NCBI GenBank assembly: GCA_030447875.1
Contig: JAUJOA010000005.1
Coordinates: 74,667-138,666 of the forward strand
Direction: 5' to 3'
DNA from: Thermoleophilaceae bacterium
GTDB taxonomy: Bacteria > Actinomycetota > Thermoleophilia > Solirubrobacterales > Thermoleophilaceae
Length of the DNA: 64,000 nt
The position numbers were made by a program, and so were the translations under genes. The notes under the pieces were generated by a model. The model saw only the letters and a program-made list of their open reading frames with translations. It was not told the origin of the DNA and made no database searches. Positions 10,985 to 47,165 of this stretch are shown one piece after another (positions within the stretch are counted from its first letter, which is position 1; each line of letters begins with the position of its first letter).

Positions 10985-12172
10985 TCACTCGTAGAGATCG
11001 TTCAGGCGCAGCGGGTCGAGCAGAGGGATCCCCGGGGATCGTGGATGTTTGTCGCGGTCTCGTCCGTGGCGCCTGTCTCGGCCGTGGCGCCTGACGCGAC
11101 CCTTCGGGCCGCATAGCGAGTGACCCTTCTTGCGCTGCTCGAGGTAGCCGTACGCGCGCTTGGCCGCGGCGAGCCGGCCCTTCCTTCCGGTCAGCGCACC
11201 CGAGTAGGCGAAGCCGCGGATGGCAAACCCGTACCCGGGCGTCTTCGGCTCGCCGTTCGTGTTGCGCTCGCGGCAGGTGCGCGTGCTCCCGCGCCAGTCG
11301 ATCCACCCGTCCCTGTCGATTCGCTTCGCCATCCAGCCGAGCCCCCGGTCGACCATCCGGCGGACCCGCCGCGTCAGCTGGCGGCCGGGGAAGTAAACCG
11401 ACCAGCGCTCCGCATAGACGATGCCCGCCATCTGGTAGCGCACGTCGTAGCCGCCCAACTCAGGGTTGACGCCGTTCGATCGCTGACGGCTCAGGCCGAG
11501 CCTGATCGCCTTGTTTCCACGGCGGGTGAACTTCGCGCGCCCGGTGACCAGGCCGGTAAGGCCGAGCGAGGTCCCGACCGTGAACCCGCTGTGGGTGTAG
11601 AACGAGTTGCGCTGCTTGAACAGGGACCAGGCGGAGCGTGCGGTCATCCGGCGGGCGGCCCGCCGCAACGGCCGCTTGTACTTCTTCAACTTCCGCTCGT
11701 GGTTGCGCCCGTAGCGCGTCTGGTCGAGAAGCAGAATCGAGTGCGCCACGGCCTCGAGGAAGAAGGCGTACTCCTCCGTCTGAATGGCGCCGAAGCTGCC
11801 GTCGGGTCGCTGGCGCGCAAAGGCGTAGTCGAAGGCTCGCAGTCCACGCTTGACCAGACGCGGGCTCCCCCGGACGAGCCCGGCGCGCACATAGAGGTCA
11901 CCGGCTTGCTGGTGGGCGAGGAAGAACGGTGCGCCCTCTTTGCGATTCAGCCCGAGCTGGCCGCGCCTTCCCATCGGGGGAAGCTTGCGGTAATCGCTCC
12001 TCGCGATGACCGGAGTTCGCTCGAGACGGAGGTCCAGTCGCGCCTTGCGCGCCGGCTTTCGCTTGTCCTTCCCGGGGCGAGCCTTGCCGCCCCTCTCTCC
12101 CTGCTCCGGCAACGGAAGAAGATCGAGCGGTCCGGCAGCGCTGACCGAGGGGAAGGCGAGGCCGAGGACCAC
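10985..12172 (-). CDS. Secreted toroid-like protein, paralogue 1 (unknown family, possible glycan-active)
   Basis: A 395-residue exported protein, closely related to the one at 45966-47165. Shared blocks include ERTPVI, FFLAHQQAGDLYVRAG, FDYAFARQRPDGSFGAIQTE, YTHSGFTVGTSLGLTG, GVNPELGGYDVRYQMAG, WIDWRGSTRTC and the terminal DLYE. The regularly spaced helical segments and conserved His/Asp/Tyr/Trp residues resemble alpha/alpha-toroid glycoside hydrolases and lyases, but I recognise no named family. The first usable start is GTG 12172; the hydrophobic signal region (LALLVVLGLAFPSVSA) extends just upstream with no standard start, so the 5' end may be wrong. Near the C-terminus this copy has a basic HGRDRRHGRDRDKH insertion. 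Confidence 0.75.
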   Translation of the reverse strand: MVLGLAFPSVSAAGPLDLLPLPEQGERGGKARPGKDKRKPARKARLDLRLERTPVIARSDYRKLPPMGRRGQLGLNRKEGAPFFLAHQQAGDLYVRAGLVRGSPRLVKRGLRAFDYAFARQRPDGSFGAIQTEEYAFFLEAVAHSILLLDQTRYGRNHERKLKKYKRPLRRAARRMTARSAWSLFKQRNSFYTHSGFTVGTSLGLTGLVTGRAKFTRRGNKAIRLGLSRQRSNGVNPELGGYDVRYQMAGIVYAERWSVYFPGRQLTRRVRRMVDRGLGWMAKRIDRDGWIDWRGSTRTCRERNTNGEPKTPGYGFAIRGFAYSGALTGRKGRLAAAKRAYGYLEQRKKGHSLCGPKGRVRRHGRDRRHGRDRDKHPRSPGIPLLDPLRLNDLYE

Positions 12173-12346
12173 CAGTAGGGCAAGACCCGCTCCGCTCCGT
12201 AGCGCCGCAGCGGGCGCTCTCCGGTGGCCAGCAAGCCCGGACCTTCCTCCTCTCGCGCCTATCCCCTCACCCCGCGCCCACTCTTACCGATCCGCCGGCG
12301 AGCTGCAACCCGGCCGCGGCTGGAGCGCAGCCGTTCGCGCCGCGGG

Positions 12347-12460
12347 TCAAGCGTGGGCGGCTTCGACCAAGGTCGGCGGAGCCAGTCGCTTGACGGCCGC
12401 CTTCACATCCGCATCGTTCGCGGCGTGGCCGCAGAAGAGGATGTGCGCGGCGCGCACCAC
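12347..12460 (-). other. Possible small ORF, 37 residues
   Basis: Between the toroid-like gene and the cold-shock gene (12173-12511) I see only this candidate. From GTG 12460 it reads VVRAAHILFCGHAANDADVK and ends KRLAPPTLVEAAHA before the stop. The residue mix is protein-like, but there is no clear ribosome binding site and no family. It may be chance or the remnant of a longer gene. Confidence 0.2.
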
Positions 12461-12511
12461 GAAGCTTGCCCGGCGCAGCGCTCAGCGCCGGGCCGGCGTG
12501 GGGAGACGCGA

Positions 12512-12541
12512 GCGAAGGGCCTCCGGCCGGAGGCCCTTCGC
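12512..12541 (-). terminator. Perfect 13-bp stem-loop after the cold-shock gene
   Basis: The sequence gcgaagggcctcc, a 4-nt loop ggcc, then ggaggcccttcgc forms a perfect 13-bp hairpin. It lies 14 nt past the stop of the minus-strand cold-shock gene. There is no T-tract, so it is either a terminator of the GC-rich actinobacterial kind or an RNA-stabilising hairpin. Confidence 0.65.
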
Positions 12542-12555
12542 CGCGCTGCTACTTG

Positions 12556-12759
12556 CTAGACCGGCTGGACGTTTACCGCCCTCGGGCCCTTGTCTCCGGC
12601 CTCCGAGTCGTAGGAGACCTTCGCGCCCTCGTCGAGCGACTTGAAGCCCTCTCCGACGATGGCTGAGTGATGGACGAACAGATCGGCGTTGCCTTCATCG
12701 GGGGTGATGAAGCCAAAGCCCTTGTCGTCACTGAAGAACTTGACAGTTCCGGTGGCCAT
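12556..12759 (-). CDS. cspA: Cold-shock protein (CspA family)
   Basis: A 67-residue single cold-shock domain starting [20 protein letters not shown], with the RNP1 motif KGFGFI and RNP2-like DLFVHHSAI. It binds single-stranded nucleic acid and acts as an RNA chaperone, by family. ATG 12759 has the ribosome binding site GGAGG 5 nt upstream. The upstream in-frame extension to 12828 is untranslated leader. A strong hairpin lies immediately downstream. Confidence 0.95.
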
Positions 12760-12897
12760 GTTTCCTCCACGGCTCATGTGCTGCACGAACGCGGAGGATG
12801 CTGGTACGCAACAACAGCGCGGCTGCACGGCTTTCGTCGAGTGCGAACCACTCGACCTTCGCCAGGGACCGTAGCAGCCCGCGCGCGTTTCTGGTTG

Positions 12898-13299
12898 CTA
12901 GCTCGAGCCGTTGCGGTGGCTCGGAGTCTGCCCTTCGATCTTCTCCCTGATCCGCTGGAACGTGACTGAATCGAGCCCGAGGGCGACCGCCACGCGCTCC
13001 AGCCGAAAGCCCTTGTCGGCCGCTCGGCGCAGGATCGCCTCGGCGTGCTCCGAGCGACGGTGCGCGGACGCGTGGTCGACGCTCGCGCTCGGGCCGCCCA
13101 ACTTGGCCATCTGCGTCGTCTCCCCTAGGTGCTCAGTGATGAGGGCGCTCCCCGCGGCCTTGGTCCCCTTCCCAGAAATGGCTGACGACCTCGCCGCGGC
13201 CGCCTTCGTCCACTCCTCAATCAGGGGCTCGAGCGGAACCCTAGCCGGTCGGCGGACGCTCCGCGTGGAGAACCCGCTCCTCCGCCAGCGCGCACGCAC
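12898..13299 (-). CDS. Hypothetical protein with possible HTH-like C-terminus
   Basis: Unrecognised protein of up to 133 residues. The region from LEPLIEEWTKAA to the end looks protein-like. The stretch AEAILRRAADKGFRLERVAV followed by ALGLDSVTFQRIREKI resembles a helix-turn-helix, though weakly. The start is uncertain because the earliest one overlaps the preceding small gene by 59 nt. It is downstream of the 60-residue coiled-coil gene and may be co-transcribed with it. Confidence 0.5.
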   Translation of the reverse strand: MRARWRRSGFSTRSVRRPARVPLEPLIEEWTKAAAARSSAISGKGTKAAGSALITEHLGETTQMAKLGGPSASVDHASAHRRSEHAEAILRRAADKGFRLERVAVALGLDSVTFQRIREKIEGQTPSHRNGSS

Positions 13300-13423
13300 G
13301 CTCGAGCTCCCTCAGGCGAACAAGGCTGGTAGGCCGCGGGCCATGGACCCTGGCCTTGTAGAGGTCTCGGCGCTGGCGCTGGTACCGCGCCTCGGCTCGA
13401 AGCTCCTCTACGCGCGACGACAT
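13241..13423 (-). CDS. Small charged helical protein
   Basis: From ATG 13423 the protein starts MSSRVEELRAEARYQRQRRD and continues LYKARVHGPRPTSLVRL, then a second helix RELERACALAEERVLHAE. The pattern of two amphipathic charged helices separated by GPRPTS suggests a short coiled-coil hairpin. It is 60 residues long. No family name can be given. It lies directly downstream of the DEAD-box helicase gene. Confidence 0.55.
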   Translation of the reverse strand: MSSRVEELRAEARYQRQRRDLYKARVHGPRPTSLVRLRELERACALAEERVLHAERPPTG

Positions 13424-13463
13424 GGCGCGGGCCTTCCGGAGCGAGTGGACGCGGACGCGAACA

Positions 13464-14585
<1,122 letters not shown>

Positions 14586-14714
14586 ATGTGTGAACTCCTT
14601 GTGAGCTGCGGGGAGATCCGGCGACCCCGGTAGCGCTCACGAGCGCACAGAGAGACGGAACCTCTCGGGCGCCACGGTGGCCACCCGACTCGCTCACCGT
14701 AGCATCAGCCGCCA

Positions 14715-16550
<1,836 letters not shown>

Positions 16551-16577
16551 GCGGGCGCGCAGCAGCGCATCCGCGAG

Positions 16578-17597
16578 TCACCCGGTGCTGCAACTGAGTG
16601 AGCCCGAATCCCCTCGCCGGCCGGACTTGCGAACGAAGGTGTATCTCGCGGAGCCGCTCTCGAGGCGGAGGCGCAGGGCGCCGAAGTGGCGATCGTCCGA
16701 GGCCTTGAGTCGCCGGTGGCTCTCATCGACCGAGTAGCGCTCCCTGCCGCCGGTGCCGACCACGAACTGGACCACGCCATGACGGCGCCGAAAGCGCTGG
16801 TAGTTGTGATCGTGGCCGCTCAGCGCGGCGACCGCGTGACCTGACAGCGTCGACCAGAGCGCGCCGAGCGAGGGATCGCTTCCATGCTCGCCGGCGTTGT
16901 AGCGCGGCCTGTGGAAGAAGGCGATCGTACAGTCGCCGGGGTGGCGCGCCAGATCGCCCCGCAGCCAGGCGAGTTGGGCCGAGCCGCTGCCGATCGGCTC
17001 CTGCGTGTTCAGGCTGACGATGTGCCAGCCGCCGAGGTCGAACGAATAGAAGTGGCCGCCGTTGCGCGGTGCCTGGGGCCCCCAGTAGGGGTCGTAGCCC
17101 AGGGGGTGATTCGGCCAGTCGTGATTCCCGGGCGTAGGGCTCGTCTTCGCCTTGAAGCGTCCGAATGAGCTTTGGTAGTTCGTGGCGAACTCGAACGCGG
17201 TGCCGGTCTCGTACACGTCGCCCAGATACAGCAGCCGCCGGAAGTCCCCCTCCGCCTGGATGCGCGCGGCGGTGTCATCGTCCGCGGAGCCTGGAACGGC
17301 TCCGTCGCCGACGGCCCAGATCGTCGTCGCCTGCGCTGAGGAGGCGGGACCGAGCGCCAGGACCAATGCGACCGCGAGCGCGACGACAGTCAGCGGTGAG
17401 GTCCATCCGGCGCTTGGTCGCCGGACGGGCGCCCCTGCGCCCAACCGCGTCGATCCAGCGCCATCCACCGGCCGCCCTCTCGTCGATGCCCGAGCCAAGC
17501 GGCTTCCACGTCGACGCGCTTCATCGCCAGGCGAAGGCGCTGGGCCTCGCCACCGTTGCGCTTCGTACTGGAGCCCGAGCGCCCGATGTACCCGCAC
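16578..17597 (-). CDS. Secreted metallophosphoesterase (purple acid phosphatase-like)
   Basis: Exported calcineurin-like phosphatase. After a signal peptide (LTVVALAVALVLALGPASSAQA) the metal-binding motifs appear in order: AVGDGAVPG, LYLGDVYETG, GNHDWPNH, FFHRPRY and GHDHNYQRF. These fit the purple acid phosphatase branch (GDxxY, GNHD, GHxHxY). The ORF extends 70 residues upstream of the signal sequence with no ATG next to it, so the true start may be one of several GTG or TTG codons between 17380 and 17460. Confidence 0.83.
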   Translation of the reverse strand: MRVHRALGLQYEAQRWRGPAPSPGDEARRRGSRLARASTRGRPVDGAGSTRLGAGAPVRRPSAGWTSPLTVVALAVALVLALGPASSAQATTIWAVGDGAVPGSADDDTAARIQAEGDFRRLLYLGDVYETGTAFEFATNYQSSFGRFKAKTSPTPGNHDWPNHPLGYDPYWGPQAPRNGGHFYSFDLGGWHIVSLNTQEPIGSGSAQLAWLRGDLARHPGDCTIAFFHRPRYNAGEHGSDPSLGALWSTLSGHAVAALSGHDHNYQRFRRRHGVVQFVVGTGGRERYSVDESHRRLKASDDRHFGALRLRLESGSARYTFVRKSGRRGDSGSLSCSTG

Positions 17598-17632
17598 CCG
17601 CTACAGCGTAGTCGCGAACGACGGAGCCGGCG

Positions 17633-18166
17633 CTACTTCGAGCCGACCAGGTCGATCACGAAGACGAGCGTCTCATTCGGGCCGATGGCCGGCGGGGAGC
17701 CCTGGGCCCCGTAGGCGAGGTCCGGGGGAATCGTGAGCCGGCGGCGGCCGCCGACCTTCATCCCCTCGAGCCCTTGGTCCCAGCCGGGGATCACCATGCC
17801 CTCGCCAAGCCTGAAGGCGAACGGCTCTCCACGCTCCCAGGAGGAGTCAAACTCCTCCCCCGTCGCGTAGGAGACGCCGACGTACTGCACCTCGAGCTCG
17901 TCACCCGCCTCGGCGGCCGCGCCGTCCCCTTCCACGATGTCCTCTGTCTCGAGCGAGCTCGGAGGCGGCGCCTCGGGGACCTCGATCGAGGGCTTGCTGT
18001 CCAGGTCGGTCGAAACGTCGCTCGGCGCGGGCGTCGTGGCCGCCTCGCCGGCGGGCGCCGGCTCGGCTCCCGTCGTGCCGTCCTCGCTGGCCGCGTCGTC
18101 GCCGCCGCAGGCGGCGAACGCAAGCGAGAGCACGAGCAGCGGGAGAGCGAGCGCCTTCTTCACCAC
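17633..18166 (-). CDS. FKBP-type peptidyl-prolyl isomerase lipoprotein
   Basis: GTG at 18166 overlaps the preceding stop (TAGTG), and gives a lipoprotein signal KKALALPLLVLSLAFAACGG. A linker of acidic and Pro residues precedes the FKBP domain: GDELEVQYVGVSYATGEEFD, WERGEPFAFRLGEGMVIPGW, LEGMKVGGRRRLTIPPDLAYG and ETLVFVIDLV. It accelerates prolyl isomerisation in exported proteins at the outer face of the membrane. Third gene of a likely operon with the SDR and the nitroreductase-like gene. Confidence 0.92.
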   Translation of the reverse strand: MVKKALALPLLVLSLAFAACGGDDAASEDGTTGAEPAPAGEAATTPAPSDVSTDLDSKPSIEVPEAPPPSSLETEDIVEGDGAAAEAGDELEVQYVGVSYATGEEFDSSWERGEPFAFRLGEGMVIPGWDQGLEGMKVGGRRRLTIPPDLAYGAQGSPPAIGPNETLVFVIDLVGSK

Positions 18167-18615
18167 TACGTCCGTGGCTCGAGCACGACGAGCGGGATCT
18201 CCCGCTCGGTCCGCTGCTGATAGCCCCTGTAGCCGGCGTAGGTCTGGATCGCCTTCGGCCACAGGCGCGCGCGCTCCTCGGGTTCAGCCACTCGAGCCCG
18301 GACCTGGCGGCGTTCAGAGCCCACCTGGATCGTGGTGTCCGGGTTCGCGCGCAGATTGTGAAACCAGGCGGGGTTCCTCGGATGGCCGCCCTTCGAGGCC
18401 ACGAGGACGACGCTGTCGCCGTCGCGCACGTAGACGAGCGGCGTCGTCCGCCTCGCGCCGCTCCTCGCCCCCACGTGCTCGAGCAGGAGCATGGGCGGCG
18501 CGCCCGGAAAGCGGTGGCCCACGAAGCCGCCCGTGGCGCGATAGACCACGGTGTGGCCCTTCATGAGCCGGTTGAGGACGGGCCAAAGCCTGTCGGTGGC
18601 GCGCATGTAGTCCAT
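18166..18615 (-). CDS. F420/deazaflavin-type nitroreductase family protein
   Basis: About 149 residues with the Ddn-family signature: LNRLMKGHTVVYRATGGFVG, LLLEHVGARSGARRTTPLVY, LVASKGGHPRNPAWFHNLRA and NPDTTIQVG. These proteins bind F420 or haem/flavin and act in redox detoxification. ATG 18615 (MDYMRATDR) begins 7 nt after the SDR stop, and the stop overlaps the FKBP start. Confidence 0.9.
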   Translation of the reverse strand: MDYMRATDRLWPVLNRLMKGHTVVYRATGGFVGHRFPGAPPMLLLEHVGARSGARRTTPLVYVRDGDSVVLVASKGGHPRNPAWFHNLRANPDTTIQVGSERRQVRARVAEPEERARLWPKAIQTYAGYRGYQQRTEREIPLVVLEPRT

Positions 18616-18622
18616 GGGCCGC

Positions 18623-19450: not shown

Positions 19451-19547
19451 AGCGCCGCAGCCTACTCGGCCTCCCTACCGGGTACCGCGGACCGGCAGTA
19501 TCCCGTTCGACGATCCTTGCCCGAAGTCACTACACCGTCTCGCCCTC

Positions 19548-20561: not shown

Positions 20562-20592
20562 GCCACGCATCCGAGCGGTCAGGGCGGGATCG

Positions 20593-21825: not shown

Positions 21826-21844
21826 GCGTTCTCCTCCGTTGAAG

Positions 21845-24736: not shown

Positions 24737-26335
24737 TCACAAGCTCGACCGCCCGGAGCGGGAGAATCCATCGGCGTCGCGCTGGGGGGAGCCTGAACAG
24801 CGTGTCGTAGTGCGTCCCTGCGGCGTCATGCGCAAGCCGACTCGCTTCGCGCCTCGGCAGCTCTTCAAACGCAGCGTCTTCGCGCTCGGGCTCGAGACCA
24901 CGCGCGCGCCCTCGAGCTCGACCGCGTAGCCCCTTCGGTAGTGGAGCGCGGGGACGAAGACCTCGCTCACCGAGCCGGGCCCGAACCGTCCCCGCCCGCT
25001 CGCTCGCCGCGTCGAGTAGCGGAGGTCGAAGACCTTGGTGTCGTCGTCGAAGTCGAAGCTCCGGGGCGTACCGGCAACCGTCTGGGGATACGGCCGCGCC
25101 GAGATACGAAGCTTGTCGCGGTCGAGGTTGCGACCTCGCGGCGGTTTCGAAGGGTCCTTCACGAGAGCCTGTGCGTCAAGCGGCCGGGCAGCCGTCGTGG
25201 GGTCGTCGCACGCGCAGTAGTGCCACTGCTGCCAGGAGATCATCCGCTTGTCGGCAAGCTCGACTACCCGCTCCACCGTCTCGAGGTCGTCGGTCGCGGC
25301 AAACTCCGACATCAGGAGCGCATCGCCGGTCTCGCTCGACTGGCTCTCCGCGTTGTCGAGCGTGAGCTCGTAGCCGGTGTCGCAGGCGGCCTGTCCCGGA
25401 GGACCGGGGATTCCCCCAGGGAATCCGAGACCGTCCGCGAGGCAGTACATGTTGAAGGCAAAGCCCGCGTTGCGATCACCTGTGTCGCCGTGACTCGTGT
25501 CGGCACCGAAGTCAAAGGTGAGGAGGGGCGCATACCAAACCAGCGTCTGACGATCGACGGTCCGAATGGCCTGGATGATGCGCTTCGAGAAGGGCTCGAG
25601 GAACTGGCGGTCGAACACGGGGCAGCCGGTCGGCGAGATGCAGCTCGGGTACTGCGACCCCGGCCACGGCTCGTTGAACAGGTTGTAGCCGAGGACGTGA
25701 GAGTTGTCGCGAAAGCGCTTCGCCACGTGCCGCCAGGCGGCGCCGTAGGCCTCCTGCAGCCGCCGACCGTCGGCGGCGCGGTCGTTGGTCCAGAAGTGGT
25801 CGAAGGCGCGATTCAGTGCCTGCATCCCGAGGTAGTTCGCAGGGAAGCCCTGCCTTGGCTCGGCCGGGAGCGTCCGGGCATCGCCTACGACGGCCCAGTC
25901 AGGCAGTCCCTCGCCCTGAAAGCGCTCGTTGTAGAGGTCTTGGTGGAAGTCGAGCAGGCTGTAGATGCCGCGACGGGCTAGCACCCGCTCCGTGTCCTCG
26001 ATGCCGCGCAAATACGACCGCCGGTAGCGTGGATCGCCGTCCGGATCCGGCAAGCGCGGCTCGAGGCCCTTGTGGGTGAGCCCGAGCCGCACGGTGTTGA
26101 AGCCGTGGCGTGCGAGGAAGCGGGCGTCGTCTCTGCCAAAGCCGGCGTCCTCGGGCAGGTACGAGCCGACCTTGTAGACCATGTTCCAGCCGTGCAGGAT
26201 GACGGTTCTCCCGCGCGCGTCGGTTATCCACCGGCCTTCATGCGACAGCGGCTCGCTGGGCCCAGCCACGGCCACCCCGGAGCACGCAAGGGCCAGCATC
26301 GGCGCCAGCAGCAACGTGAGCCTTCTACTCCCCAT
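24737..26335 (-). CDS. Secreted GH5 hydrolase, endoglycoceramidase-like
   Basis: Exported glycoside hydrolase family 5 enzyme. After a signal peptide (MGSRRLTLLLAPMLALACSG) comes VILHGWNMVYKVGSYLPED, then SLLDFHQDLYNERFQGEGLP, the acid/base Glu in YNLFNEPWPGS and the nucleophile Glu in ALLMSEFAATDD. The FHQDLYNERF block is characteristic of endoglycoceramidases, which release glycan from glycosphingolipids. A C-terminal beta domain (residues about 420-500) is also usual. Whether the substrate is a glycosphingolipid or another glycolipid is unknown. Monocistronic. Confidence 0.88.
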   Translation of the reverse strand: MGSRRLTLLLAPMLALACSGVAVAGPSEPLSHEGRWITDARGRTVILHGWNMVYKVGSYLPEDAGFGRDDARFLARHGFNTVRLGLTHKGLEPRLPDPDGDPRYRRSYLRGIEDTERVLARRGIYSLLDFHQDLYNERFQGEGLPDWAVVGDARTLPAEPRQGFPANYLGMQALNRAFDHFWTNDRAADGRRLQEAYGAAWRHVAKRFRDNSHVLGYNLFNEPWPGSQYPSCISPTGCPVFDRQFLEPFSKRIIQAIRTVDRQTLVWYAPLLTFDFGADTSHGDTGDRNAGFAFNMYCLADGLGFPGGIPGPPGQAACDTGYELTLDNAESQSSETGDALLMSEFAATDDLETVERVVELADKRMISWQQWHYCACDDPTTAARPLDAQALVKDPSKPPRGRNLDRDKLRISARPYPQTVAGTPRSFDFDDDTKVFDLRYSTRRASGRGRFGPGSVSEVFVPALHYRRGYAVELEGARVVSSPSAKTLRLKSCRGAKRVGLRMTPQGRTTTRCSGSPQRDADGFSRSGRSSL

Positions 26336-26466
26336 TCGCGGCGTAACGTACAGCGCCACGATCCTCCCGGCTACCGCTGAGGCGCTCGAGCACTCCCCTG
26401 GTCAACCTGCTGCGGCCGGCGCCCGGAGTCGCCTGAAGACGACCGGGCGCAGCCGCGCTGAGACTG

Positions 26467-37960: not shown

Positions 37961-38129
37961 GGATCGCCAACAGTAGAGACATTGGGCGTGGGACGTGACG
38001 CACGACGACCTCTCACCGCGGCGAGTGAGTCTGCGGCCCCGCTTTCCGAACCAATCACCATCCCTCCGGCGACTCTAAGTCCGACGGGGGAGGCCGACCG
38101 CCGTGTCCGTGCGCGCGGCCTTAGCCCCA

Positions 38130-38700: not shown

Positions 38701-38749
38701 CGGAGGGCTGGTATGTTCCTCCGAGCGACGCCTCGGAGAGTCGAGCGTT

Positions 38750-39357: not shown

Positions 39358-39383
39358 CGTCGAGCGGCCGATCGAAGACGGCC

Positions 39384-39403
39384 TACGTACATGCATGTAT
39401 GTA
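39384..39403. promoter_or_regulatory. TetR-type operator palindrome
   Basis: The 20-bp sequence tacgtacatgcatgtatgta is an inverted repeat with a single mismatched pair, centred at 39393/39394, containing a perfect 12-bp core tacatgcatgta. It lies between a TetR gene (minus) and a membrane protein gene (plus), the classic place for an autoregulated TetR operator. The half-site TACATACAT resembles operators of AcrR-like repressors. A TATAGTAT box follows at 39402-39409. Confidence 0.75.
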
Positions 39404-39436
39404 TAGTATCGTCTGGTCTAGCGAGGAAGACTTCTG

Positions 39437-39976
39437 ATGTGGACGACCACAGCCCCGCCCCGCAGCTCACACTGTCTCCGTGGCGGGCACCTGCGCGCGG
39501 AAGCCGCACGGCCTGCTGGTCACCACGCCGGGTCGCGGCCGAATGCGGGCGCCGCCCAAGCGTGGTTCATCGCGGGCACGATCCCGCTCATTCTCGCCGG
39601 CGGCCTTCACGCGCTCGCAGCGCTGCGCGCGACACGGTCCGCCCGACATACTTCTACTCCGATCGACCGGTCGGTCAAGCCGGTGGTCGAAGGCACCGGT
39701 ATCCGGCTGGTGGGCAAGCCCACACCGTCGATGTGGAGAGTATGGCTCGGCATCAACATCACCCACGGCCTCGGCATCTTCACCTTTGGGCTGCTATGCC
39801 TGCTGATCGCCACGCACGACTTCAAGCTGGTCGAGGGCATCGACGCCATCCGACCGCTCACGATCGCCTTCTCCGCCGCCCTACTCGCCGTCTCCCTGCG
39901 CTTCTTCTTCTACGGTCCAGCGATCACCGGCATCGCCACAGCATGCTTCACCGTCGCCACCGTGGTCTCGGCATGA
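39437..39976 (+). CDS. Membrane protein under probable TetR control
   Basis: About four transmembrane helices: AWFIAGTIPLILAGGLHALA, VWLGINITHGLGIFTFGLLC, PLTIAFSAALLAVSLRFFFY, AITGIATACFTVATVVSA. The segment between helices 1 and 2 (RSVKPVVEGTGIRLVGKPTP) is polar. The first 40 residues of the open frame are not convincing, so the true start may be later or the 5' end frameshifted. Family seen elsewhere next to TetR genes; function unknown. Confidence 0.65.
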   Translation: MWTTTAPPRSSHCLRGGHLRAEAARPAGHHAGSRPNAGAAQAWFIAGTIPLILAGGLHALAALRATRSARHTSTPIDRSVKPVVEGTGIRLVGKPTPSMWRVWLGINITHGLGIFTFGLLCLLIATHDFKLVEGIDAIRPLTIAFSAALLAVSLRFFFYGPAITGIATACFTVATVVSA

Positions 39977-40069
39977 CGACGAAGGGGGCGCAGCGGTCGT
40001 ACTCGCCGAAGCCAGAGGCTGTCAGCAGTCCGTCGCCAGAAGAACCACCGTACGGATGGAGGTCCACGA

Positions 40070-40666
40070 GTGAGGCTCCCTAACACCGCGCACACCTCCC
40101 GGCCCTGGCGGATCCACGAGCTCACCCGCGACTTCCGGCTCGAGGACGTCTGGGCGCTGCCCACGCCGGGGGCCCGGACGACCTCCCGCGGCTGGTGGCA
40201 CGGATCGCCGCGGGCGACACGTCGACCAACCCCTCCCGCGCCGCTCCGCGCGCTCTTCGCGATCCGGTGGAAGGTCGGGAGCCGCTCGGCTGGGATGACC
40301 CGGACGCCGGCCACGGCTCGCAGCCGACGCTCCAGGCGACCGGTTGCCGGTGGATCTGCGCGAGGCCCCGGCCCGGACTTCGACACGCTTCCCTTCAGCC
40401 TGCTCTACCTGCTCGACGACGAGTGGGCGGCGGAGGTCGTCAACCGGACCGTTCACGGAGTGATGCACATCGGCTGGGTCCCGGACGGGACCGGCGGCTA
40501 CCGCGGCCAGATGGCCGTTCTGGTGAAGCCGAACGGGCTGCTCGGCAGCGCCTACATGGCCGCGATCATGCCGTTCCGGCGCCTGATCGTCTACCCGCCG
40601 CTGATGCGAGCGCTCGGGCGGGATTGGCGGGCGAGCGCCGGCGATCCGACACCGGCGCACGCTTAG
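40070..40666 (+). CDS. DUF2867 protein with internal out-of-frame patches
   Basis: Starts at GTG 40070 (RLPNTAHTSRPWRIHELTRD) and ends with a clear DUF2867 domain: PDFDTLPFSLLYLLDDEWAA, VVNRTVHGVMHIGWVPDGTG, MAVLVKPNGLLGSAYMAAIM, RLIVYPPLMRALGRDWRA. In the middle (residues about 33-105) the natural sequence alternates between frames: ARIAAGDTSTNPSRAA and LGWDDPDAGHGS are in a second frame, while RALFAIRWKVG is in the first. Several indels that happen to cancel would explain an open but partly scrambled frame. Confidence 0.65.
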   Translation: MRLPNTAHTSRPWRIHELTRDFRLEDVWALPTPGARTTSRGWWHGSPRATRRPTPPAPLRALFAIRWKVGSRSAGMTRTPATARSRRSRRPVAGGSARGPGPDFDTLPFSLLYLLDDEWAAEVVNRTVHGVMHIGWVPDGTGGYRGQMAVLVKPNGLLGSAYMAAIMPFRRLIVYPPLMRALGRDWRASAGDPTPAHA

Positions 40667-40796
40667 CCTCGGATGACACGAAGACGACCGCGCCGACCAC
40701 GTCGGACGACGGGTCCTCCGCCAGCTCGCTAGAGAGCGAGGTCGCGCCCGCGGTGCCAGAGAAGCGCTGAAAGCGGTGATGAACCGTCGGGGGCCG

Positions 40797-41456
40797 TTAC
40801 TCGAGGAAGCTCGCGGCGGCTGCTGCGGTGGCCGCGGACGACTTGTTCAGGCTGCGGGTCGCCCTCAGCTCGCTGCTCGTAGGCCACCAGTTGGCGCGGC
40901 AGCCCTGGAGACCGATCGACTGCTGTTGCATCACGGGAGCCTTCGTGCCTCGTTCGGGACAGTTGCGGTCGCCGTGCCCGATCCGATGGCCCATCTCGTG
41001 ATTGACGAGCATCCGGCGGTAGTTCCGGCGCGAGTCGGGCCAGTGGGGCACACCGCGCTGCCAACGACGTAGGTTGACGACGACCTTCTCCCCTATGCGG
41101 CATGAGTATCTCCGCGTTTGCAGGTAGCAGAGCCGCTGCACCTGGCGGGGCTTAGCCAGGATGACGCGCGTGTTTCCGCCCCCGTCCACCCGCTTGAATG
41201 CGACCGCTCCAGAGCGCGTCCAGCTTCGGTCGTCGACCAGGATGCCCTCGACCTCCGCGGCGAAGCGCTTCCGGCGGATGTCGATCGACCGCTGCACCTG
41301 CACCTCGAAGCGGTAGGTCGCGCCGGACCCGACCCGCTTGCTCTCGCCGTCGACCGTGACGTAGTCCGCGGCGGATGCGACCGGGGCAGCCTGGGCGGCA
41401 CCCGCGCCGAGGGCCAGGCCAGCGGCCGCCGCCCCGAGAATCTTGGACCGCACCAT
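40797..41456 (-). CDS. Secreted DUF3152 zinc-metalloprotease-like protein
   Basis: A 219-residue exported protein: signal peptide MVRSKILGAAAAGLALGAGA, central region DYVTVDGESKRVGSGATYRF, and the zinc motif NHEMGHRIGHGD near residue 152 (HExxH-x2-GH type). This fits DUF3152, a probable metallopeptidase family of actinobacteria. Cysteines in RLCYLQTRRYSC, DRNCPERG and LQGC may form disulfides. The Ala/Ser-rich tail after residue 190 is not part of the domain. Confidence 0.85.
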   Translation of the reverse strand: MVRSKILGAAAAGLALGAGAAQAAPVASAADYVTVDGESKRVGSGATYRFEVQVQRSIDIRRKRFAAEVEGILVDDRSWTRSGAVAFKRVDGGGNTRVILAKPRQVQRLCYLQTRRYSCRIGEKVVVNLRRWQRGVPHWPDSRRNYRRMLVNHEMGHRIGHGDRNCPERGTKAPVMQQQSIGLQGCRANWWPTSSELRATRSLNKSSAATAAAAASFLE

Positions 41457-41685
41457 CCCCGCACCTTAGAGGGCGTCACGGGGACGTGGCATCTCTTGAG
41501 GCTCAAGCCGTTCTCGGATCCTCGAGTAGCGCGCGAGCGCGGAGGGCTCTCGCTACGGATACGGAACGTCGTCCTCGAGCGCGTAGTGGCTGACGCCGGT
41601 TGTACCCCGGGGAGGCCAGAGTCGGGGGTCAGACCGACCGATGGCAAGTTCGGCGATTCGAGGGGCTCGAAGGTCCCCGGAGGCT

Positions 41686-42465
41686 CTAGGCCGGTGGAGC
41701 GGAGCCCGGGCGCGGCTGCGACTCGGGGACAGTCGGTTGTGTGGGCGCTTGAGCGCTCCCGCCGGGTTGCAGCGACGCAGCTTCTCCAGTCGGCGCCCCC
41801 TCGCCCTTCAAGCCTCTGAGGTTGAAGTAGAGGACGGCTGACGCGAGCGCCACAAGCGGCGCGGTGAGGACACTCGCGACGAAGTCCGCGATGAGACGGC
41901 CCGCGGTCCCTGCCGCGCCGCCGATGGCACCCAGAACAGCCGAAACGACGACGAGTATCAGGAAGAAGAGAACGATCACGGCGAGCACCTGCCATCCATG
42001 CCCCCGCACGAGCTCGCGGCTGCGCCCGAAGGCGGCAATGACGCCCGGCCGTTCGAGGACGATCACCGGGGAGATCACTGCCCAGATGGTGAGTAGGAAG
42101 AGGCCCGGAATGATCAGCAGGATGAAGCCGAGCGCGATCCCGAGCCCCGCCAGGAGGCCCGCGGCAATCAGCGGGACGACCGCCCCCGTGACCGCTCGGA
42201 GCAGCTCGCCGACAGAGAAGTCCCGCCTACCGTCCTGGACATCGTTTACCAGAGCGACGACCATGCCCTGGAAGAACGTCGTGGCTACGATCTGCACGAC
42301 GAGCGCGACGAGGACCAGGATCGGGCTCACGGCCACGAGGAGCGCGCCGAGTACTGCCTCGATCAGGAACACGGCCGCCGCCGCCGGCAGCAGGACAGCC
42401 GCGTGGTCACGGTAGATCTTGAAGACGCCGTCAATGACGTGCCCGATGTCGAGTCGTGAGTTCAT
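41686..42465 (-). CDS. Polytopic membrane protein (GPDP-membrane/DUF975-like)
   Basis: A 259-residue protein with about six hydrophobic helices. It starts MNSRLDIGHVIDGVFKIYRD, shows SVGELLRAVTGAVVPLIAAG and AVISPVIVLERPGVIAAFGR SRELVRGHGWQV. The ERPGVIAAFGRSREL pattern is shared by membrane domains of the glycerophosphodiester-phosphodiesterase-associated kind. A Pro/Gln-rich cytoplasmic tail of about 40 residues ends it. Function unknown. The 41457-41685 gap holds nothing I can support. Confidence 0.75.
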   Translation of the reverse strand: MNSRLDIGHVIDGVFKIYRDHAAVLLPAAAAVFLIEAVLGALLVAVSPILVLVALVVQIVATTFFQGMVVALVNDVQDGRRDFSVGELLRAVTGAVVPLIAAGLLAGLGIALGFILLIIPGLFLLTIWAVISPVIVLERPGVIAAFGRSRELVRGHGWQVLAVIVLFFLILVVVSAVLGAIGGAAGTAGRLIADFVASVLTAPLVALASAVLYFNLRGLKGEGAPTGEAASLQPGGSAQAPTQPTVPESQPRPGSAPPA

Positions 42466-42596
42466 GAGGCCAACCTAACCGATCAGTCGGCTACCTCGAT
42501 AGGACAGCTTCACCTGGACTACAAAGACCCAGGTCCGCTCTAGGACTCCTTCGCGCAGGCGCGGCTAAGTGACGATCAAGGCCGCACCGCGCAAAC

Positions 42597-43421
42597 TTAC
42601 GCCCGCGTGCCTACCGCGAGCAGGTACTCCTTCTCAAAGCGCGCTCGATCGGGCGTGCCGCGATTCCACTCGTCGCAGAACCGATCCAGTGCCTCGTCGA
42701 ACTCCGCTTCGCGCCCGTTCGTGCGCGCGTTTGCCTGGGCGGCGATGGTCGGACCGTATCGTGCCTTGAAGTGCTCGCCGTAGTCGCGAGGGCGCTCGAA
42801 GGCCGTGACCTCCAGCAGGTCGCGCTCCAGCGTCCGCCAGTCGACGCGATCCCCGAACAGCTCGTCGATGTGGTCCTCGCTGCCCCAGAGCGGCGGCGGT
42901 TGCGCGCCCGGTGGCGGCGGCGGGGCGAACGGTCCCATTGTCCGGAACAGTGCACCGATCATGCCCTCTGGTGTCCAGCACAGCAGCCCGATCGTGCCAC
43001 CAGGACGGCAAACGCGGACCAGTTCGTCGGCAACAGCCTGGTGGTGGGGCGCAAACATCGCGCCGATCGATGACATGACTACGTCGAACGACTCGTCGTC
43101 GAACGGCAGCTTCTCGGCATCGGCTTCCACCCACTCGAGCTCGAGTCCGTGCGCCTCCGCGTGGCGACGGCCCGCCTCGAGCAACTCGGGCGTGAGGTCG
43201 CTGGCCGTGACGCTGGCGCCGCGTTGCGCCGCGGGAATCGAGGCGTTTCCGGTGCCCGCGGCGACGTCGAGGACGCGCATGCCGGAGCCGATGCCGCAGG
43301 CTTCCACAAGCCGTGGCCCCAGCGGCAGAAGGAACGTCTCGACCATCGACGCGTAGTCGCCCGACGCCCACATCGCGCGATGGCGCGCCTTTAGATCGGA
43401 ATTTGGCACTGTGGAGGACAA
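42597..43421 (-). CDS. Class I SAM-dependent methyltransferase
   Basis: UbiE/Methyltransf_11-type enzyme: motif I VLDVAAGTGNASIPAAQRGA, the acidic loop after strand 2 (TASDLTPELLEAGR), FDDESFDVVMSSIGAMFAPH and CRPGGTIGLLCWTPEG. TTG 43421 is chosen because AAGGAG lies 6 nt upstream; GTG 43409 is the alternative. Substrate unknown. Its promoter region runs into a truncated nitronate monooxygenase gene. Confidence 0.88.
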   Translation of the reverse strand: MSSTVPNSDLKARHRAMWASGDYASMVETFLLPLGPRLVEACGIGSGMRVLDVAAGTGNASIPAAQRGASVTASDLTPELLEAGRRHAEAHGLELEWVEADAEKLPFDDESFDVVMSSIGAMFAPHHQAVADELVRVCRPGGTIGLLCWTPEGMIGALFRTMGPFAPPPPPGAQPPPLWGSEDHIDELFGDRVDWRTLERDLLEVTAFERPRDYGEHFKARYGPTIAAQANARTNGREAEFDEALDRFCDEWNRGTPDRARFEKEYLLAVGTRA

Positions 43422-43447
43422 GGCACTCTCCTTCCAATTGACAATGC

Positions 43448-43834
43448 CGAACCTACCGCGCCGAGGAGGCTCGTATCCACCCCCAGTACGTCGACGCCCT
43501 GATCCGGGCAGGTGCCGAGGACACGGTCCTGACCGAGGCATTTTCGGTCGGCGGTCCCCCCTCGCCCCACCGAGGTCTACGCTCGGCACTCGAGGCGGCG
43601 AGTGACTTCGAGGACGACATCGTCGGCGAGATGCAGGTGCTCGGCGAGCGCCGGAAGCTGCGCCGCTTCTCGGCCGACAATCCGGCCGACAACGCGACGG
43701 GACGCGTCGAGGCCATGGCGCTGTACGCGGGGGAGTCGGTGGGAGGCGTCAAGGGGGTCCAGCCCGCACGCGAGATCGTCGCCGAGCTTTCCGCCGAAGC
43801 GGCTGAGCTGCTGCGGCGCGTCGGCCCTCGATAG
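43448..43834 (+). pseudogene. Nitronate monooxygenase, 3' fragment
   Basis: In one open frame without a start, the sequence reads EARIHPQYVDALIRAGAEDT, VLTEAFSVGGPPSPHRGLRS and ends ESVGGVKGVQPAREIVAELS. This is the last third of an FMN-dependent nitronate monooxygenase, including the SVGGVKGVQPA region. The N-terminal two thirds with the FMN site are missing. The break point, near 43448, coincides with the upstream region of the divergent methyltransferase gene. Confidence 0.75.
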
Positions 43835-43976
43835 TCAACTCGATCGCGGACCGGCTCGCCGAGCTTTGCGCGAGTGCGGCGGGCTGATGCAGACCTACCC
43901 CGACACTCGCCTATCGCTTCGTCGAGGTAATCGACTGCCGTAGCGGGCTGCCGGCGCGTTGCCGATCCTGACGTAG

Positions 43977-43996
43977 CGGTATCAGTGGTGATACCG
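43977..43996. promoter_or_regulatory. Operator palindrome of the toxin-antitoxin pair
   Basis: cggtatca-gtgg-tgataccg is a perfect 8-bp inverted repeat with a 4-nt spacer, ending 5 nt before the antitoxin start region. Ribbon-helix-helix antitoxins bind such palindromes to repress their own operon, so this is very probably the autoregulatory site. Confidence 0.75.
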
Positions 43997-44000
43997 TCGT

Positions 44001-44207
44001 GTGATGGCCATGACGCTGCGCCTCACTGACCACGAGACCGATGCCCTGCGTCAGCGTGCTCAGCGCGAAGGACGTTCGATGCAAGACGTCGCCCGGGCGG
44101 CCGTGCGGGAGTACATCGATCGTACGAGCCGCCAGGAGTTGCTGGACGAGGTCCTTGACGAGGAGCTTCCCCGGTTCGCCGAGGCACTGCGACGCCTGGG
44201 CGAGTGA
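44001..44207 (+). CDS. Ribbon-helix-helix antitoxin
   Basis: About 65 residues: MTLRLTDHETDALRQRAQRE, GRSMQDVARAAVREYIDRTS then an acidic tail that would wrap the toxin. The strand-helix-helix pattern with the alternating TLRLT strand is that of CopG/RHH antitoxins. GTG 44001, ATG 44004 and ATG 44010 are all possible starts; ATG 44010 (MTLRL) best matches the family. The stop overlaps the toxin GTG by 4 nt. Confidence 0.88.
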   Translation: MMAMTLRLTDHETDALRQRAQREGRSMQDVARAAVREYIDRTSRQELLDEVLDEELPRFAEALRRLGE

Positions 44208-44581
44208 TCTTCCTCGACCTCGAGGCGCTTCTCCACGTCGCAACCCGGACGCTCGGCACAGAGCCCGAGGTGCGCGACTACGGGCTTCTCGAGTCGGCGC
44301 TCGCACGGCCGCAGATGTCGGCCTTTGGCAAGGCCGCCTATCCAGACATTCATGAGAAGGCGGCGGCGCTCCTTCATTCGCTCGCACGAAACCACGCCCT
44401 CGTCGACGGCAACAAACGACTCGCCCTCGCCACGACGATCGCCTTCTACGGCATGAACGGGATGCGCCTCACCCTCACTAACGACGAGGCCTACGACTTC
44501 ATCATCGACGTTTCGAGCGGGCGGCTCGACGAGATTGCCGCGATCGCCTCCGTGCCGATGAGGAGCACGGAGCCCCGCTGA
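44204..44581 (+). CDS. doc: Doc-type toxin (Fic/Doc family)
   Basis: A 125-residue toxin: MIFLDLEALLHVATRTLGTE, RDYGLLESALARPQMSAFGK and the active-site loop HALVDGNKRLALA, matching the Doc consensus H-x-F-x-[DN]-G-N-K-R. Doc phosphorylates EF-Tu and stops translation; the antitoxin gene before it overlaps by GTGA. The pair sits among gene fragments, as is common for TA modules in accessory DNA. Confidence 0.92.
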   Translation: MIFLDLEALLHVATRTLGTEPEVRDYGLLESALARPQMSAFGKAAYPDIHEKAAALLHSLARNHALVDGNKRLALATTIAFYGMNGMRLTLTNDEAYDFIIDVSSGRLDEIAAIASVPMRSTEPR

Positions 44582-44683
44582 CCTACGTGATCCTCTCCCG
44601 ATGCGGCCATCTCCATGCGCAGCGACTCCTCGACCTCCGTCGCGACGAGCGTTAGATCGGTCCCGCCTCGCCCATCATCGGAG

Positions 44684-44971
44684 CTACGCGGTGAGGACCT
44701 CGTTCCACTCGCGGATCTGGCAATCCTTGACGACGCCGTTCAGGACGAACGGGTCTTCTGCGATGAACTCCTCAGCCGCCTCGCGCGTCGTGAAGATTGC
44801 CATCGAGCCCTCGTTCTGAGGATCGCCGAAGGTGCCGACCATGAGCAGTCTCCCGTCTTGGTGGAACTGCTGAAGCCGGTCGCTGTGCGCCGGGAAGTGG
44901 ACCGGCGCCTTCCCCAGAACGTTGTCGGCCGACTCGTAGAGGAGGACGCCGCTCAGCCTTTCGTGTGTCAA
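44684..44971 (-). CDS. YciI-like protein
   Basis: A 95-residue protein: VLLYESADNVLGKAPVHFPA, HSDRLQQFHQDGRLLMVGTF, GDPQNEGSMAIFTTREAAEE and DPFVLNGVVKDCQIREWNEV. It fits the YciI/YCII-related family, whose His-Asp pair may be catalytic. The start at TTG 44971 is uncertain since relatives begin near M-x-x-VLLYESAD. Confidence 0.87.
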   Translation of the reverse strand: MTHERLSGVLLYESADNVLGKAPVHFPAHSDRLQQFHQDGRLLMVGTFGDPQNEGSMAIFTTREAAEEFIAEDPFVLNGVVKDCQIREWNEVLTA

Positions 44972-45154
44972 GCCGGCGCAAGATCCTCACCGGGAAGCTC
45001 GAGGACCTCGAGCGGCGGATCGGCCGGCAGGTACAGGCGCTCGAGAGCGGGCTCGAGCCGCAGCTCGTCGGGAAGCGATCGCGGAGCTGCGGCAGGACGT
45101 TAGGGTTCGACGCACAGGGCCGACCGCCGACCCCGAGCACTCAAGGAGACCGCT

Positions 45155-45619
45155 ATGCCGGACGTAAAGCCCATCCCTGACGGCTACCCGCGGGTCACCC
45201 CGTATCTACACGTGGACGGAGCGGCAGCCGCGATCGAGTTCTACGTGAACGTCCTCGGAGCTAGAGAGCGCATGCGCATGCCGGGACCCGGCGGGAAGCT
45301 CGGTCACGCCGAGCTCGAATTCGGGGACTCAATCGTCATGCTCTCCGACGAGTTCCCCGAGATGGACGCCCGCGGCCCCAGTTCGATTGGCGGCACGCCG
45401 GTCACGATCCATGTCTACGTGGAGGACGTGGACGCCGTGTTCGACGCCGCAGTCCAGGCTGGCGCGACCGCCGTGAGCGCGGTAGAGGATCAGTTCTACG
45501 GGGACCGCAGCGGTCAGTTCGAGGACCCGTGGGGGCAGCGCTGGAACGTGGCCACCCATGTCGAGGACGTGCCGCCCGACGAGATGGAGAAGCGGATGGC
45601 GGAGGCGATGGCCGGCTAA
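45155..45619 (+). CDS. VOC protein (PhnB-like)
   Basis: A 154-residue glyoxalase-fold protein starting MPDVKPIPDGYPRVTPYLHV, with AIEFYVNVLGARERMRMPGP, KLGHAELEFGDSIVMLSDEF and the C-terminal YGDRSGQFEDPWGQRWNVAT. This is the PhnB/YdeI-type VOC subfamily common in actinobacteria. No metal-dependent activity is established for most members. ATG 45155 follows AAGGAG. Confidence 0.9.
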   Translation: MPDVKPIPDGYPRVTPYLHVDGAAAAIEFYVNVLGARERMRMPGPGGKLGHAELEFGDSIVMLSDEFPEMDARGPSSIGGTPVTIHVYVEDVDAVFDAAVQAGATAVSAVEDQFYGDRSGQFEDPWGQRWNVATHVEDVPPDEMEKRMAEAMAG

Positions 45620-45797
45620 TGCACCAGGGTGCATAACGGCCGGCGCCTGTGCTTCACGCCCGCCGCGCCGCAGCCCTTCCACAGCACGAATAGGCCGGCG
45701 CGAGTGCGCCCTGTCGGGGGCGGGATCTGACATATATCCCCGGATGGCGTATCGAATCGTGGAGATCGGCGAAGCCCGGTATGTCAGAGGAGCAGCA

Positions 45798-45908
45798 GTG
45801 ACCGAGATCCTGACGTACGCACACGCGAATCCGATCCAGAGGGCCTTGCGACGCTTCGGGGCGAGGACACCCGGCTCATGGTTTCGCGCGCATGGGCTGG
45901 AGGCTTAG
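45798..45908 (+). pseudogene. Deazaflavin-nitroreductase-like N-terminal fragment
   Basis: From GTG 45798, which has a good AGAGGAG ribosome binding site, the protein reads VTEILTYAHANPIQRALRRF then GARTPGSWFRAHGLEA and stops after 36 residues. The NPIQRALRRFGARTPGSWF segment resembles the start of Ddn-type nitroreductases, whose remaining 110 residues are absent. A longer in-frame reading begins at ATG 45744. Likely a 3'-truncated gene. Confidence 0.45.
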
Positions 45909-45965
45909 CCCGTCCAGCCGGTACCGATCCGGATGCCGCGTTAGCCGGCGAAACTGGCGGGTGGT

Positions 45966-47165
45966 CTACTCGTAGAGATCCGTGAACGGGGCGCCATCGG
46001 TTGACTTGAAAGAGCGCGCCTCGGGCTCCTCACCCGACTTCGCCGCCGTAACCTCCGAGGGCGAGTCGCACAAGGACTCGGCAGCGGTCCGACTGTCCAG
46101 ATAGTCGCGCAGCCGTTCTGCGTCTGCGATCAATTCCTTGCGCTCCTGCAAGGCCCCCCAGTAGGCAAAGCCACGGATGGCGTAGCTGTAACCGGGCGTC
46201 TTCGGACGCCCAGACGTGTTCTTCTCCACGCAGGTCCTCGTGCTTCCGGTCCAATCGATCCTGCCGTCCGCCTCGATGCGCCTGGACATCCAGCGGATTC
46301 CCCGGTCGACCATCTCCCGAACCGCAGGCGTCAAGCCATGGCGAGGGAAATACACAGTCCAGCGCTCGGCGTATGTCAGTCCAGCCATCTGATAGCGCAC
46401 GTCATAGCCACCGAGCTCTGGGTTGACCCCGCTGTCACGTTGTCTGCCGAGCGCCAGTTCGACTGCCTTCCGAGCGCGGCGCTTTAGCTTCCTGCGACCC
46501 GTCAGTCGCCCGGTCATCGCGAGCGCCGTCCCGACCGTGTAGCCGGAGTGCGTGTAGCTCGTATTGCGATGCTTGAAGGCGCTCCACGCAGCGGTCGAGA
46601 TCATGTGCCGAGCGGCTTGCAGCAGCCGCTCCCTATAGGCCTTGAGCTGGTCCCGGTAGCGCTCGGCGTAGGGCGTCTTCTTGAGCAGCAGAATCGAGTG
46701 TGCCACCGACTGGACGAAGAAGGCGTACTCCTCGGTTTGGATAGCGCCAAAGCTGCCGTCTGGCCGTTGGCGAGCGAAGGCGTAGTCGAACGCCTGCAGC
46801 CCGCGCTCGATCAGATCAGGCTGATCTCGGATGATCCCGGCGCGCACGTAGATGTCCCCGTGCTGCTGGTGAGACAGGAAGAACGGCGACCCGCCCGAGA
46901 GGTTGATCCCCATCTGCCCTTGATCTCCGATCGGCGGGAGCCGCTGATAGCTGTCCTCGACGATTACCGGCGTCCGCTCGAGTGCTAGATCAAGCGAGTC
47001 GCTTGGAAGCGACGGGTCCGAGGTCGTGTCGGATGAGCCGTCCGCTGGTGCGGGGAATGCGTTCACGCCAAGCACGGCGACCGAGAGAAACAGAAGCGCC
47101 GCGAAGCGCAACCCCGCTCGCCCGCCACCCCGACCTCGACGAGCGCGAGCGTAGACCACGGTCAT
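45966..47165 (-). CDS. Secreted toroid-like protein, paralogue 2 (unknown family, possible glycan-active)
   Basis: An exported protein of 399 residues from ATG 47165, with an N-terminal signal (GLRFAALLFLSVAVLGVNAF). It shares long conserved blocks with the protein at 10985-12172: ALERTPVI, FFLSHQQHGDIYVRAGIIRD, FDYAFARQRPDGSFGAIQTE, YTHSGYTVGTALAMTG, GVNPELGGYDVRYQMAG, AERWTVYFPRHGLTPAVREM, IDWTGSTRTC and the final DLYE. The invariant His-Ser-Gly, Gly-Gly-Tyr-Asp and Tyr-Gln residues could line an active site. It is divergent from the heparinase-like gene, about 220 nt between starts, so the two may act on the same polysaccharide (inference). Confidence 0.8.
   Translation of the reverse strand: MTVVYARARRGRGGGRAGLRFAALLFLSVAVLGVNAFPAPADGSSDTTSDPSLPSDSLDLALERTPVIVEDSYQRLPPIGDQGQMGINLSGGSPFFLSHQQHGDIYVRAGIIRDQPDLIERGLQAFDYAFARQRPDGSFGAIQTEEYAFFVQSVAHSILLLKKTPYAERYRDQLKAYRERLLQAARHMISTAAWSAFKHRNTSYTHSGYTVGTALAMTGRLTGRRKLKRRARKAVELALGRQRDSGVNPELGGYDVRYQMAGLTYAERWTVYFPRHGLTPAVREMVDRGIRWMSRRIEADGRIDWTGSTRTCVEKNTSGRPKTPGYSYAIRGFAYWGALQERKELIADAERLRDYLDSRTAAESLCDSPSEVTAAKSGEEPEARSFKSTDGAPFTDLYE

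What the first reader, a model, noticed from the sequence alone, without database searches (positions are those of the whole stretch)
10985..47165. Two paralogues of an unrecognised secreted toroid-like family in one window, one beside a surface heparinase-like enzyme
The proteins at 10985-12172 and 45966-47165 share long identical blocks (FDYAFARQRPDGSFGAIQTE, GVNPELGGYDVRYQMAG, GSTRTC, terminal DLYE) with invariant His, Tyr, Asp, Gln and Trp residues. They are exported, have an all-helical repeating pattern as in alpha/alpha-toroid lyases, and copy 2 is divergent from a heparinase II/III-like protein with a membrane anchor. This could be a polysaccharide-processing system at the cell surface that has not been described. 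The sequence supports family, export and neighbourhood; enzymatic activity is inference.
Basis: partly seen in the sequence, partly recalled or inferred. Interest (0 to 1): 0.8.

Follow-up and report, generated by a model that had tools for sequence, protein, structure and literature searches.

The report
Orphan exported toroid-like protein pair
Two sister genes in one actinobacterial genome make exported, probably ring-shaped helical proteins of a family not found in any protein library or other genome searched; one lies head-to-head with a heparinase-like sugar-cutting enzyme, so they probably process an acidic polysaccharide, but no activity is shown.

Summary
Copy 1 (10985-12172, -) and copy 2 (45966-47165, -) are paralogues, 64% identical over a gap-free 309-aa core with dN/dS about 0.26. 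No Pfam, NCBIfam, PHROG or PDB sequence match. Within the whole order (232 genomes), up to 399 class genomes, 397 phylum genomes and the contig and record collections, only the window's own genome has them. The fold claim is supported at class level only: AlphaFold gives consecutive helical hairpins at low confidence (pLDDT 54), and its Foldseek neighbours are mainly (alpha/alpha)6 sugar-active enzymes, none significant. Conservation concentrates on loops and inner helices (78% vs 49%). Each protein has just two cysteines after the signal region, both conserved. A weak but above-shuffle profile match links one hairpin to an uncharacterised toroid family from exopolysaccharide clusters. No homology to the heparinase toroid is detectable. 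The neighbour at 47289-49499 is a PL12-like heparinase II/III protein with the catalytic Asn, Tyr and His retained. Not supported: a recurring polysaccharide system. Copy 1 lies among unrelated genes, copy 2's link to heparinase is a single case, and no second genome exists to test it. Best reading: an unrecognised exported toroid family, probably processing an anionic glycan; chemistry open.

The parts
10985..12172 (-). Copy 1 of the orphan family, 395 aa from GTG; very basic (pI 11.5). Signal core continues in frame upstream without a canonical start codon.
45966..47165 (-). Copy 2 of the orphan family, 399 aa from ATG 47165 (longest ORF from TTG 47267); Sec-type signal peptide, linker, 309-aa helical core, variable tail ending DLYE
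46068..46994 (-). Conserved core of copy 2 (309 aa), predicted helical hairpins; ends at the second conserved Cys (C400)
11111..12037 (-). Conserved core of copy 1 (309 aa), gap-free against copy 2
47289..49499 (+). Heparinase II/III-like protein (Hepar_II_III_N + C), probable start ATG 47385, signal peptide, hydrophobic C-terminal stretch; nearest solved structures PL12 heparinase III; Asn231-His232, Tyr286, His383 retained (ORF numbering)
47166..47384 (.). 219-bp intergenic region between the divergent copy 2 and heparinase genes (probable starts)

Best explanation
The two genes encode exported, probably disulphide-clamped proteins built from consecutive helical hairpins that close into an alpha/alpha toroid of about five or six hairpins. 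Loops and inner helices would line a central cleft carrying the conserved polar residues (HQQxGD, QTEEY, RNxxYTHSG, NPELGGYDVRYQ, YAERW, GSTRTC, TPGY). The most likely role is an enzyme that binds and processes an anionic polysaccharide at or outside the cell surface, with copy 2 working on the same polymer as, or on the products of, the divergent PL12-like heparinase. Shown: paralogy, purifying constraint, uneven conservation, heparinase neighbour and its catalytic residues. Inferred: export and disulphide (from sequence), toroid closure, that the cleft is an active site, that the ligand is a polysaccharide, and the partnership. Hydrolase, lyase and epimerase chemistry cannot be told apart.
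For: AlphaFold of the core gives helical hairpins, and Foldseek against PDB returns mainly (alpha/alpha)6 carbohydrate enzymes (GH8-like, GH76, GH116, PL5, PL38, GH88, sugar 2-epimerases) at E 0.006-0.2, probability mostly above 0.9, TMq 0.25-0.46; the same model against viral proteins gives nothing comparable. Loops plus inner helices are 78% identical against 49% for outer helices, p = 1.4e-6, the pattern of a ligand-binding toroid face. Both proteins have exactly two cysteines after the signal region, conserved and 54 residues apart, and pI 9.5 and 11.5, fitting an exported protein that meets a polyanion. The hairpin PDLxxRGLxAxxxxxxxQRxDGSF matches a toroid family of exopolysaccharide clusters: profile score 31.1 without the seed sequence, against at most 23.4 in 150 column shuffles, and in genome G041 that family lies next to a heparinase II/III gene. 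The neighbour matches PL12 heparinase III structures, E 3.8e-19, and keeps Asn, Tyr and His at the motifs reported as catalytic in PL12/PL33 (PMC12088678, PMC11848413).
Against: The AlphaFold models are poor (pLDDT 48 and 54) because only two sequences exist; no Foldseek match reaches E 0.001. No sequence match to any known carbohydrate enzyme. Copy 1 has no polysaccharide genes nearby. The exopolysaccharide-family match covers about 85 residues of a motif (QxxDGSW/F) that recurs in many unrelated toroids. The inner/outer helix assignment rests on the low-confidence model. High GC content inflates arginine and so pI.
Confidence: 0.5

Rival explanations
1. Non-catalytic toroid: an exported glycan- or envelope-binding protein (lectin-like or scaffold) kept in two copies, with the DLYE end used for anchoring or partner contact.
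For: High basicity, conserved C-terminal DLYE after a variable linker, two copies in different contexts.
Against: Conservation is dense in loop and inner-helix polar residues including several carboxylates, His and Tyr, the pattern of an active site more than of a binding scaffold.
Confidence: 0.2
2. A toroid of a non-carbohydrate kind, such as terpenoid-cyclase-like, thioester-domain-like or cobalamin-binder-like.
For: The QRPDGSF repeat resembles the QW-type motif of several toroid classes (recalled, not tested); Foldseek also lists complement C4, alpha2-macroglobulin and transcobalamin at weak scores.
Against: No Pfam match to any such family even at E 10; with the core-only model carbohydrate enzymes dominate the list.
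Confidence: 0.15
3. A very divergent D-glucuronyl C5-epimerase-like protein that replaces the C5-epim_C proteins common in this class.
For: C5-epim_C proteins occur in 70 of 149 sampled class genomes but not in this one; weak profile score 24.7 over 174 columns.
Against: At least one of 150 column shuffles scored higher (maximum 27.0); merging the families lowers the score; the genome is only 77% complete, so the absence is weak.
Confidence: 0.1
4. A heparinase/lyase toroid that has lost its beta-sheet domain, homologous to the N-terminal domain of its neighbour.
For: A loose motif order by eye (THSG against SNHG, GVNPELGGY against GVHLEHSPGY, DGR loops).
Against: Profile comparison gives no signal: score 17.4 against shuffles of 15.1 +/- 2.2; no Hepar_II_III match.
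Confidence: 0.05

Closest known systems
Uncharacterised alpha/alpha-toroid-like family of exopolysaccharide clusters (L045, L052-L058; L045 has no Pfam or NCBIfam match)
   Same: Helical hairpin with QRxDGSW/F turn, 300-400 aa, one case next to a heparinase II/III gene; profile score above all shuffles
   Different: L045 shows no obvious signal peptide; G041 member shares an ORF with a glycosyltransferase; only about 85 residues align and the rest does not
PL12 heparinase III / Hepar_II_III (the neighbour gene)
   Same: Presumed alpha/alpha toroid; divergent gene pair
   Different: No sequence relationship; the orphan has no beta-sheet domain
D-glucuronyl C5-epimerase C-terminal family, PF06662
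   Same: Helical family, several members with signal-peptide-like starts, common in the same class; weak alignment over 174 columns
   Different: No Pfam match; score not clear of shuffles
Single-domain (alpha/alpha)6 enzymes: PL5/PL38 lyases, GH88, GH76, GH8-like
   Same: Size and predicted hairpin architecture; top Foldseek neighbours
   Different: No sequence similarity; TM-scores at most 0.46 on a low-confidence model; no matching catalytic motif identified

Membership tests
(alpha/alpha)n toroid fold | Closed ring of helical hairpins | tested here: inconclusive
   Helical hairpins predicted, pLDDT 54, pTM 0.53; best matches are toroids but none under E 0.001
Hepar_II_III (PF16889/PF07940), orphan proteins | Match to the N- or C-terminal domain profile | tested here: not met
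   No Pfam match at E 10; hhalign within shuffle range
Hepar_II_III, neighbour 47289-49499 | Both domain profiles over the curated cut-off | tested here: met
   PF07940 74 bits, PF16889 51 bits
PL12/PL33-type lyase, neighbour 47289-49499 | Catalytic Asn, Tyr and His | tested here: met
   Asn231, Tyr286 and His383 invariant in three homologues at the known motifs (PMC12088678, PMC11848413); assigned by motif, not by structure; activity not tested
C5-epim_C (PF06662) | Profile match | tested here: not met
   No Pfam hit, none in the genome; profile-profile score inconclusive
Alginate lyase PL5/PL38 (PF05426) | Profile match | tested here: not met
   No Pfam hit, none in the genome; fold similarity only
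GH88 (PF07470) | Profile match | tested here: not met
   No Pfam hit at E 10; Foldseek 1vd5 TMq 0.46, E 0.17
Any uronate-processing enzyme | Activity on a uronate glycan | not testable with these tools
   Needs a biochemical assay

The most novel reading that the evidence does not exclude
The pair founds a new carbohydrate-active enzyme family: an exported, disulphide-clamped toroid that works with a PL12-like heparinase on a heparosan- or uronate-like polymer in a free-living actinobacterium.
Probability: 0.2. Interest if true: 0.55.

Novelty: new variant of a known kind. Interest (0 to 1): 0.36.

Why it matters
If the toroid reading is right, this is a sequence family that public profile libraries miss entirely, and its pairing with a heparinase-like protein gives a concrete substrate hypothesis to test. 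Relatives of this heparinase are rare in the order (4 of 151 genomes), so what acidic glycan such bacteria meet or make is itself open. The value is limited for now because the family is known from one incomplete genome.

Tried and rejected
(1) More relatives: class, family, order and phylum genome searches, GTDB pattern scans (9, 15), viral contigs (21), plasmids, phages: none. The best outside hit, G007 (E 4e-4), lies antisense to a longer, evidently real gene (a trehalose-synthase-type protein by eye), so chance. Of the other weak hits I opened L045, L048 and L049; only L045 looks like a toroid. (2) Homology to the neighbour's toroid: suggested by eye, rejected by hhalign. (3) PDB sequence hits to a beta-galactosidase: 48 residues, E 0.5, chance. 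(4) Merged C5-epimerase plus exopolysaccharide-toroid profile: lower score. (5) First AlphaFold run on full length: poorer than core-only. (7) Papers on C5-epimerases in this class: none found.

Full report
WHAT IS THERE. Copy 1 (10985-12172, minus strand) and copy 2 (45966-47165, minus strand; the longest ORF starts at TTG 47267 but the better start is ATG 47165) are real genes. A six-frame search of the genome finds these two and no third. Their cores align over 309 residues without a gap at 64% identity. A Nei-Gojobori count gives dS about 1.17 and dN about 0.31, so the proteins are constrained and the duplication is old. The quoted identical blocks are correct, including the last four residues DLYE after a variable, charged linker. 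Copy 2 starts with a standard signal peptide (MTVVYARARRGRGGGRAGLRFAALLFLSVAVLGVNAFPA). Copy 1 has the hydrophobic part in frame but no canonical start upstream of GTG 12172, so its N-terminus is unresolved. After the signal region each protein has exactly two cysteines, both conserved and 54 residues apart, which suggests a disulphide.

HOW RARE. Pfam (to E 10), NCBIfam, PHROGs and PDB sequences give no match. Genome searches covered the complete order as held (232 genomes), all 31 family genomes, 249 and 399 sampled class genomes and 397 phylum genomes. Only the window's own genome, a 1.7-Mb, 77% complete assembly, has the family. Two pattern scans of the GTDB genome contigs, which see only close relatives, and scans of viral contigs, plasmids and phages were empty. 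Other phyla were not searched with a profile, so 'orphan' means within this phylum sample.

FOLD. AlphaFold on the two-sequence core alignment has mean pLDDT 54 and pTM 0.53 and predicts helices at core residues 59-74, 87-106, 114-142, 149-165, 168-188, 199-215, 223-243, 269-282 and 286-301; the full-length run adds a helix over core residues 38-55. Foldseek against PDB is not significant (best E 0.006), but the list is dominated by (alpha/alpha)6 carbohydrate enzymes: GH8-like CPF_2247, GH76, GH116, PL5 (Smlt1473, AlgL), the lyase BACCELL_00875 (PL38 by my knowledge), GH88, sugar 2-epimerases. The viral library gives nothing of the sort. Taking the predicted helices, outer helices are 49% identical between copies and loops plus inner helices 78% (Fisher p 1.4e-6). 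This is what a ligand-binding toroid mouth would show. It depends on the low-confidence model.

REMOTE RELATIVES. A loose profile search in 399 class genomes gave chance hits and one interesting protein, L045: 396 aa, no Pfam or NCBIfam match, overlapping the start of a glycosyltransferase-like (DUF354-type, by eye) gene. Its family (7 of 119 genomes) shares with the orphan the hairpin PDLxxRGLxAxxxxxxxQRxDGSF. To remove selection bias I rebuilt the profile without L045: the score is 31.1, against 15.7 +/- 2.6 and a maximum of 23.4 in 150 column shuffles, 17.7 for the reversed core, and 12-19 for 18 other window proteins. The C5-epimerase family scores 24.7 (shuffle maximum 27.0) and the heparinase toroid 17.4 (no signal). 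The L045 family and the C5-epimerase family are themselves related (hhalign probability 92). So the nearest detectable kin is an unnamed exopolysaccharide-cluster toroid family, by one or two hairpins only; the motif could be convergent.

NEIGHBOURHOOD. The heparinase II/III protein at 47289-49499 (Pfam N and C domains) is the only one in the genome. Its three-sequence profile matches PL12 heparinase III structures, E 3.8e-19, and Asn231, Tyr286 and His383 sit at the motifs described as catalytic in PL12 and PL33 (PMC12088678, PMC11848413). It has its own signal peptide and a hydrophobic C-terminal segment. Copy 2 and heparinase are divergent with about 219 bp between probable starts. Both have lower third-position GC (0.78 and 0.75) than the mean of 0.86, with heparinase the lowest of 31 genes measured, a hint of a shared and later origin. 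Around them are a glyoxalase-like gene, a Fic gene and a methyltransferase, not a polysaccharide cluster. Copy 1 lies between GNAT/AI-2E transporter genes and a cold-shock gene. A same-family genome with four heparinase-like matches (G258; some on contig ends and partial) lacks the orphan. In G041 (same order) a heparinase II/III gene lies beside a glycosyltransferase-toroid ORF of the L045 family, an analogous but not homologous pairing.

INTERPRETATION. The best account is an unrecognised exported toroid family that probably processes an anionic glycan. Paralogy, constraint, rarity and the neighbour's identity are shown. Fold is moderately supported, glycan function is inferred, and chemistry is undetermined. 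Conserved residues suit either a hydrolase (E179/E180, E284, D289, E301) or a lyase/epimerase (N235, H240, Y288/Y292, R291).

SCORE. Orphan families with a plausible sugar-enzyme fold are common in metagenome-derived genomes (own knowledge), and this one rests on a single assembly. It is worth a follow-up in larger protein catalogues but is not surprising yet.

Noticed in passing
L045:1063-2253, L052-L058; L062:5282-7921: An uncharacterised 300-400 aa alpha/alpha-toroid-like family in exopolysaccharide-type clusters (L045 without Pfam or NCBIfam match), profile-related to C5-epim_C (hhalign probability 92); in G041 it appears in one 880-aa ORF with a glycosyltransferase, beside a heparinase II/III gene.
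   Followed up: partly
L013-L042 (other genomes of the class): Proteins with the glucuronyl C5-epimerase C-terminal domain (PF06662) are widespread in this class (70 of 149 genomes), but absent from the window's genome; no literature on them was found.
   Followed up: partly
L006, L009, L010, L011 (genome G258): One same-family genome carries four matches to the heparinase-like gene (some partial at contig ends), while most of the order has none.
   Followed up: partly
window 12173-12283: Copy 1 has in-frame signal-peptide sequence upstream of its only canonical start codon, so it either uses a rare start or carries an indel or assembly error.
   Followed up: partly
window 24737-26359: A GH5 glycosidase with the GH5 C-terminal domain.
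   Followed up: no
window 49502-49822: Short ORF with an RTX calcium-binding repeat match just downstream of the heparinase gene.
   Followed up: no
window 44204-44581: A small Fic/Doc-family protein (125 aa); a short ORF directly upstream (44001-44207, +) overlaps its start and could be an antitoxin partner.
   Followed up: no
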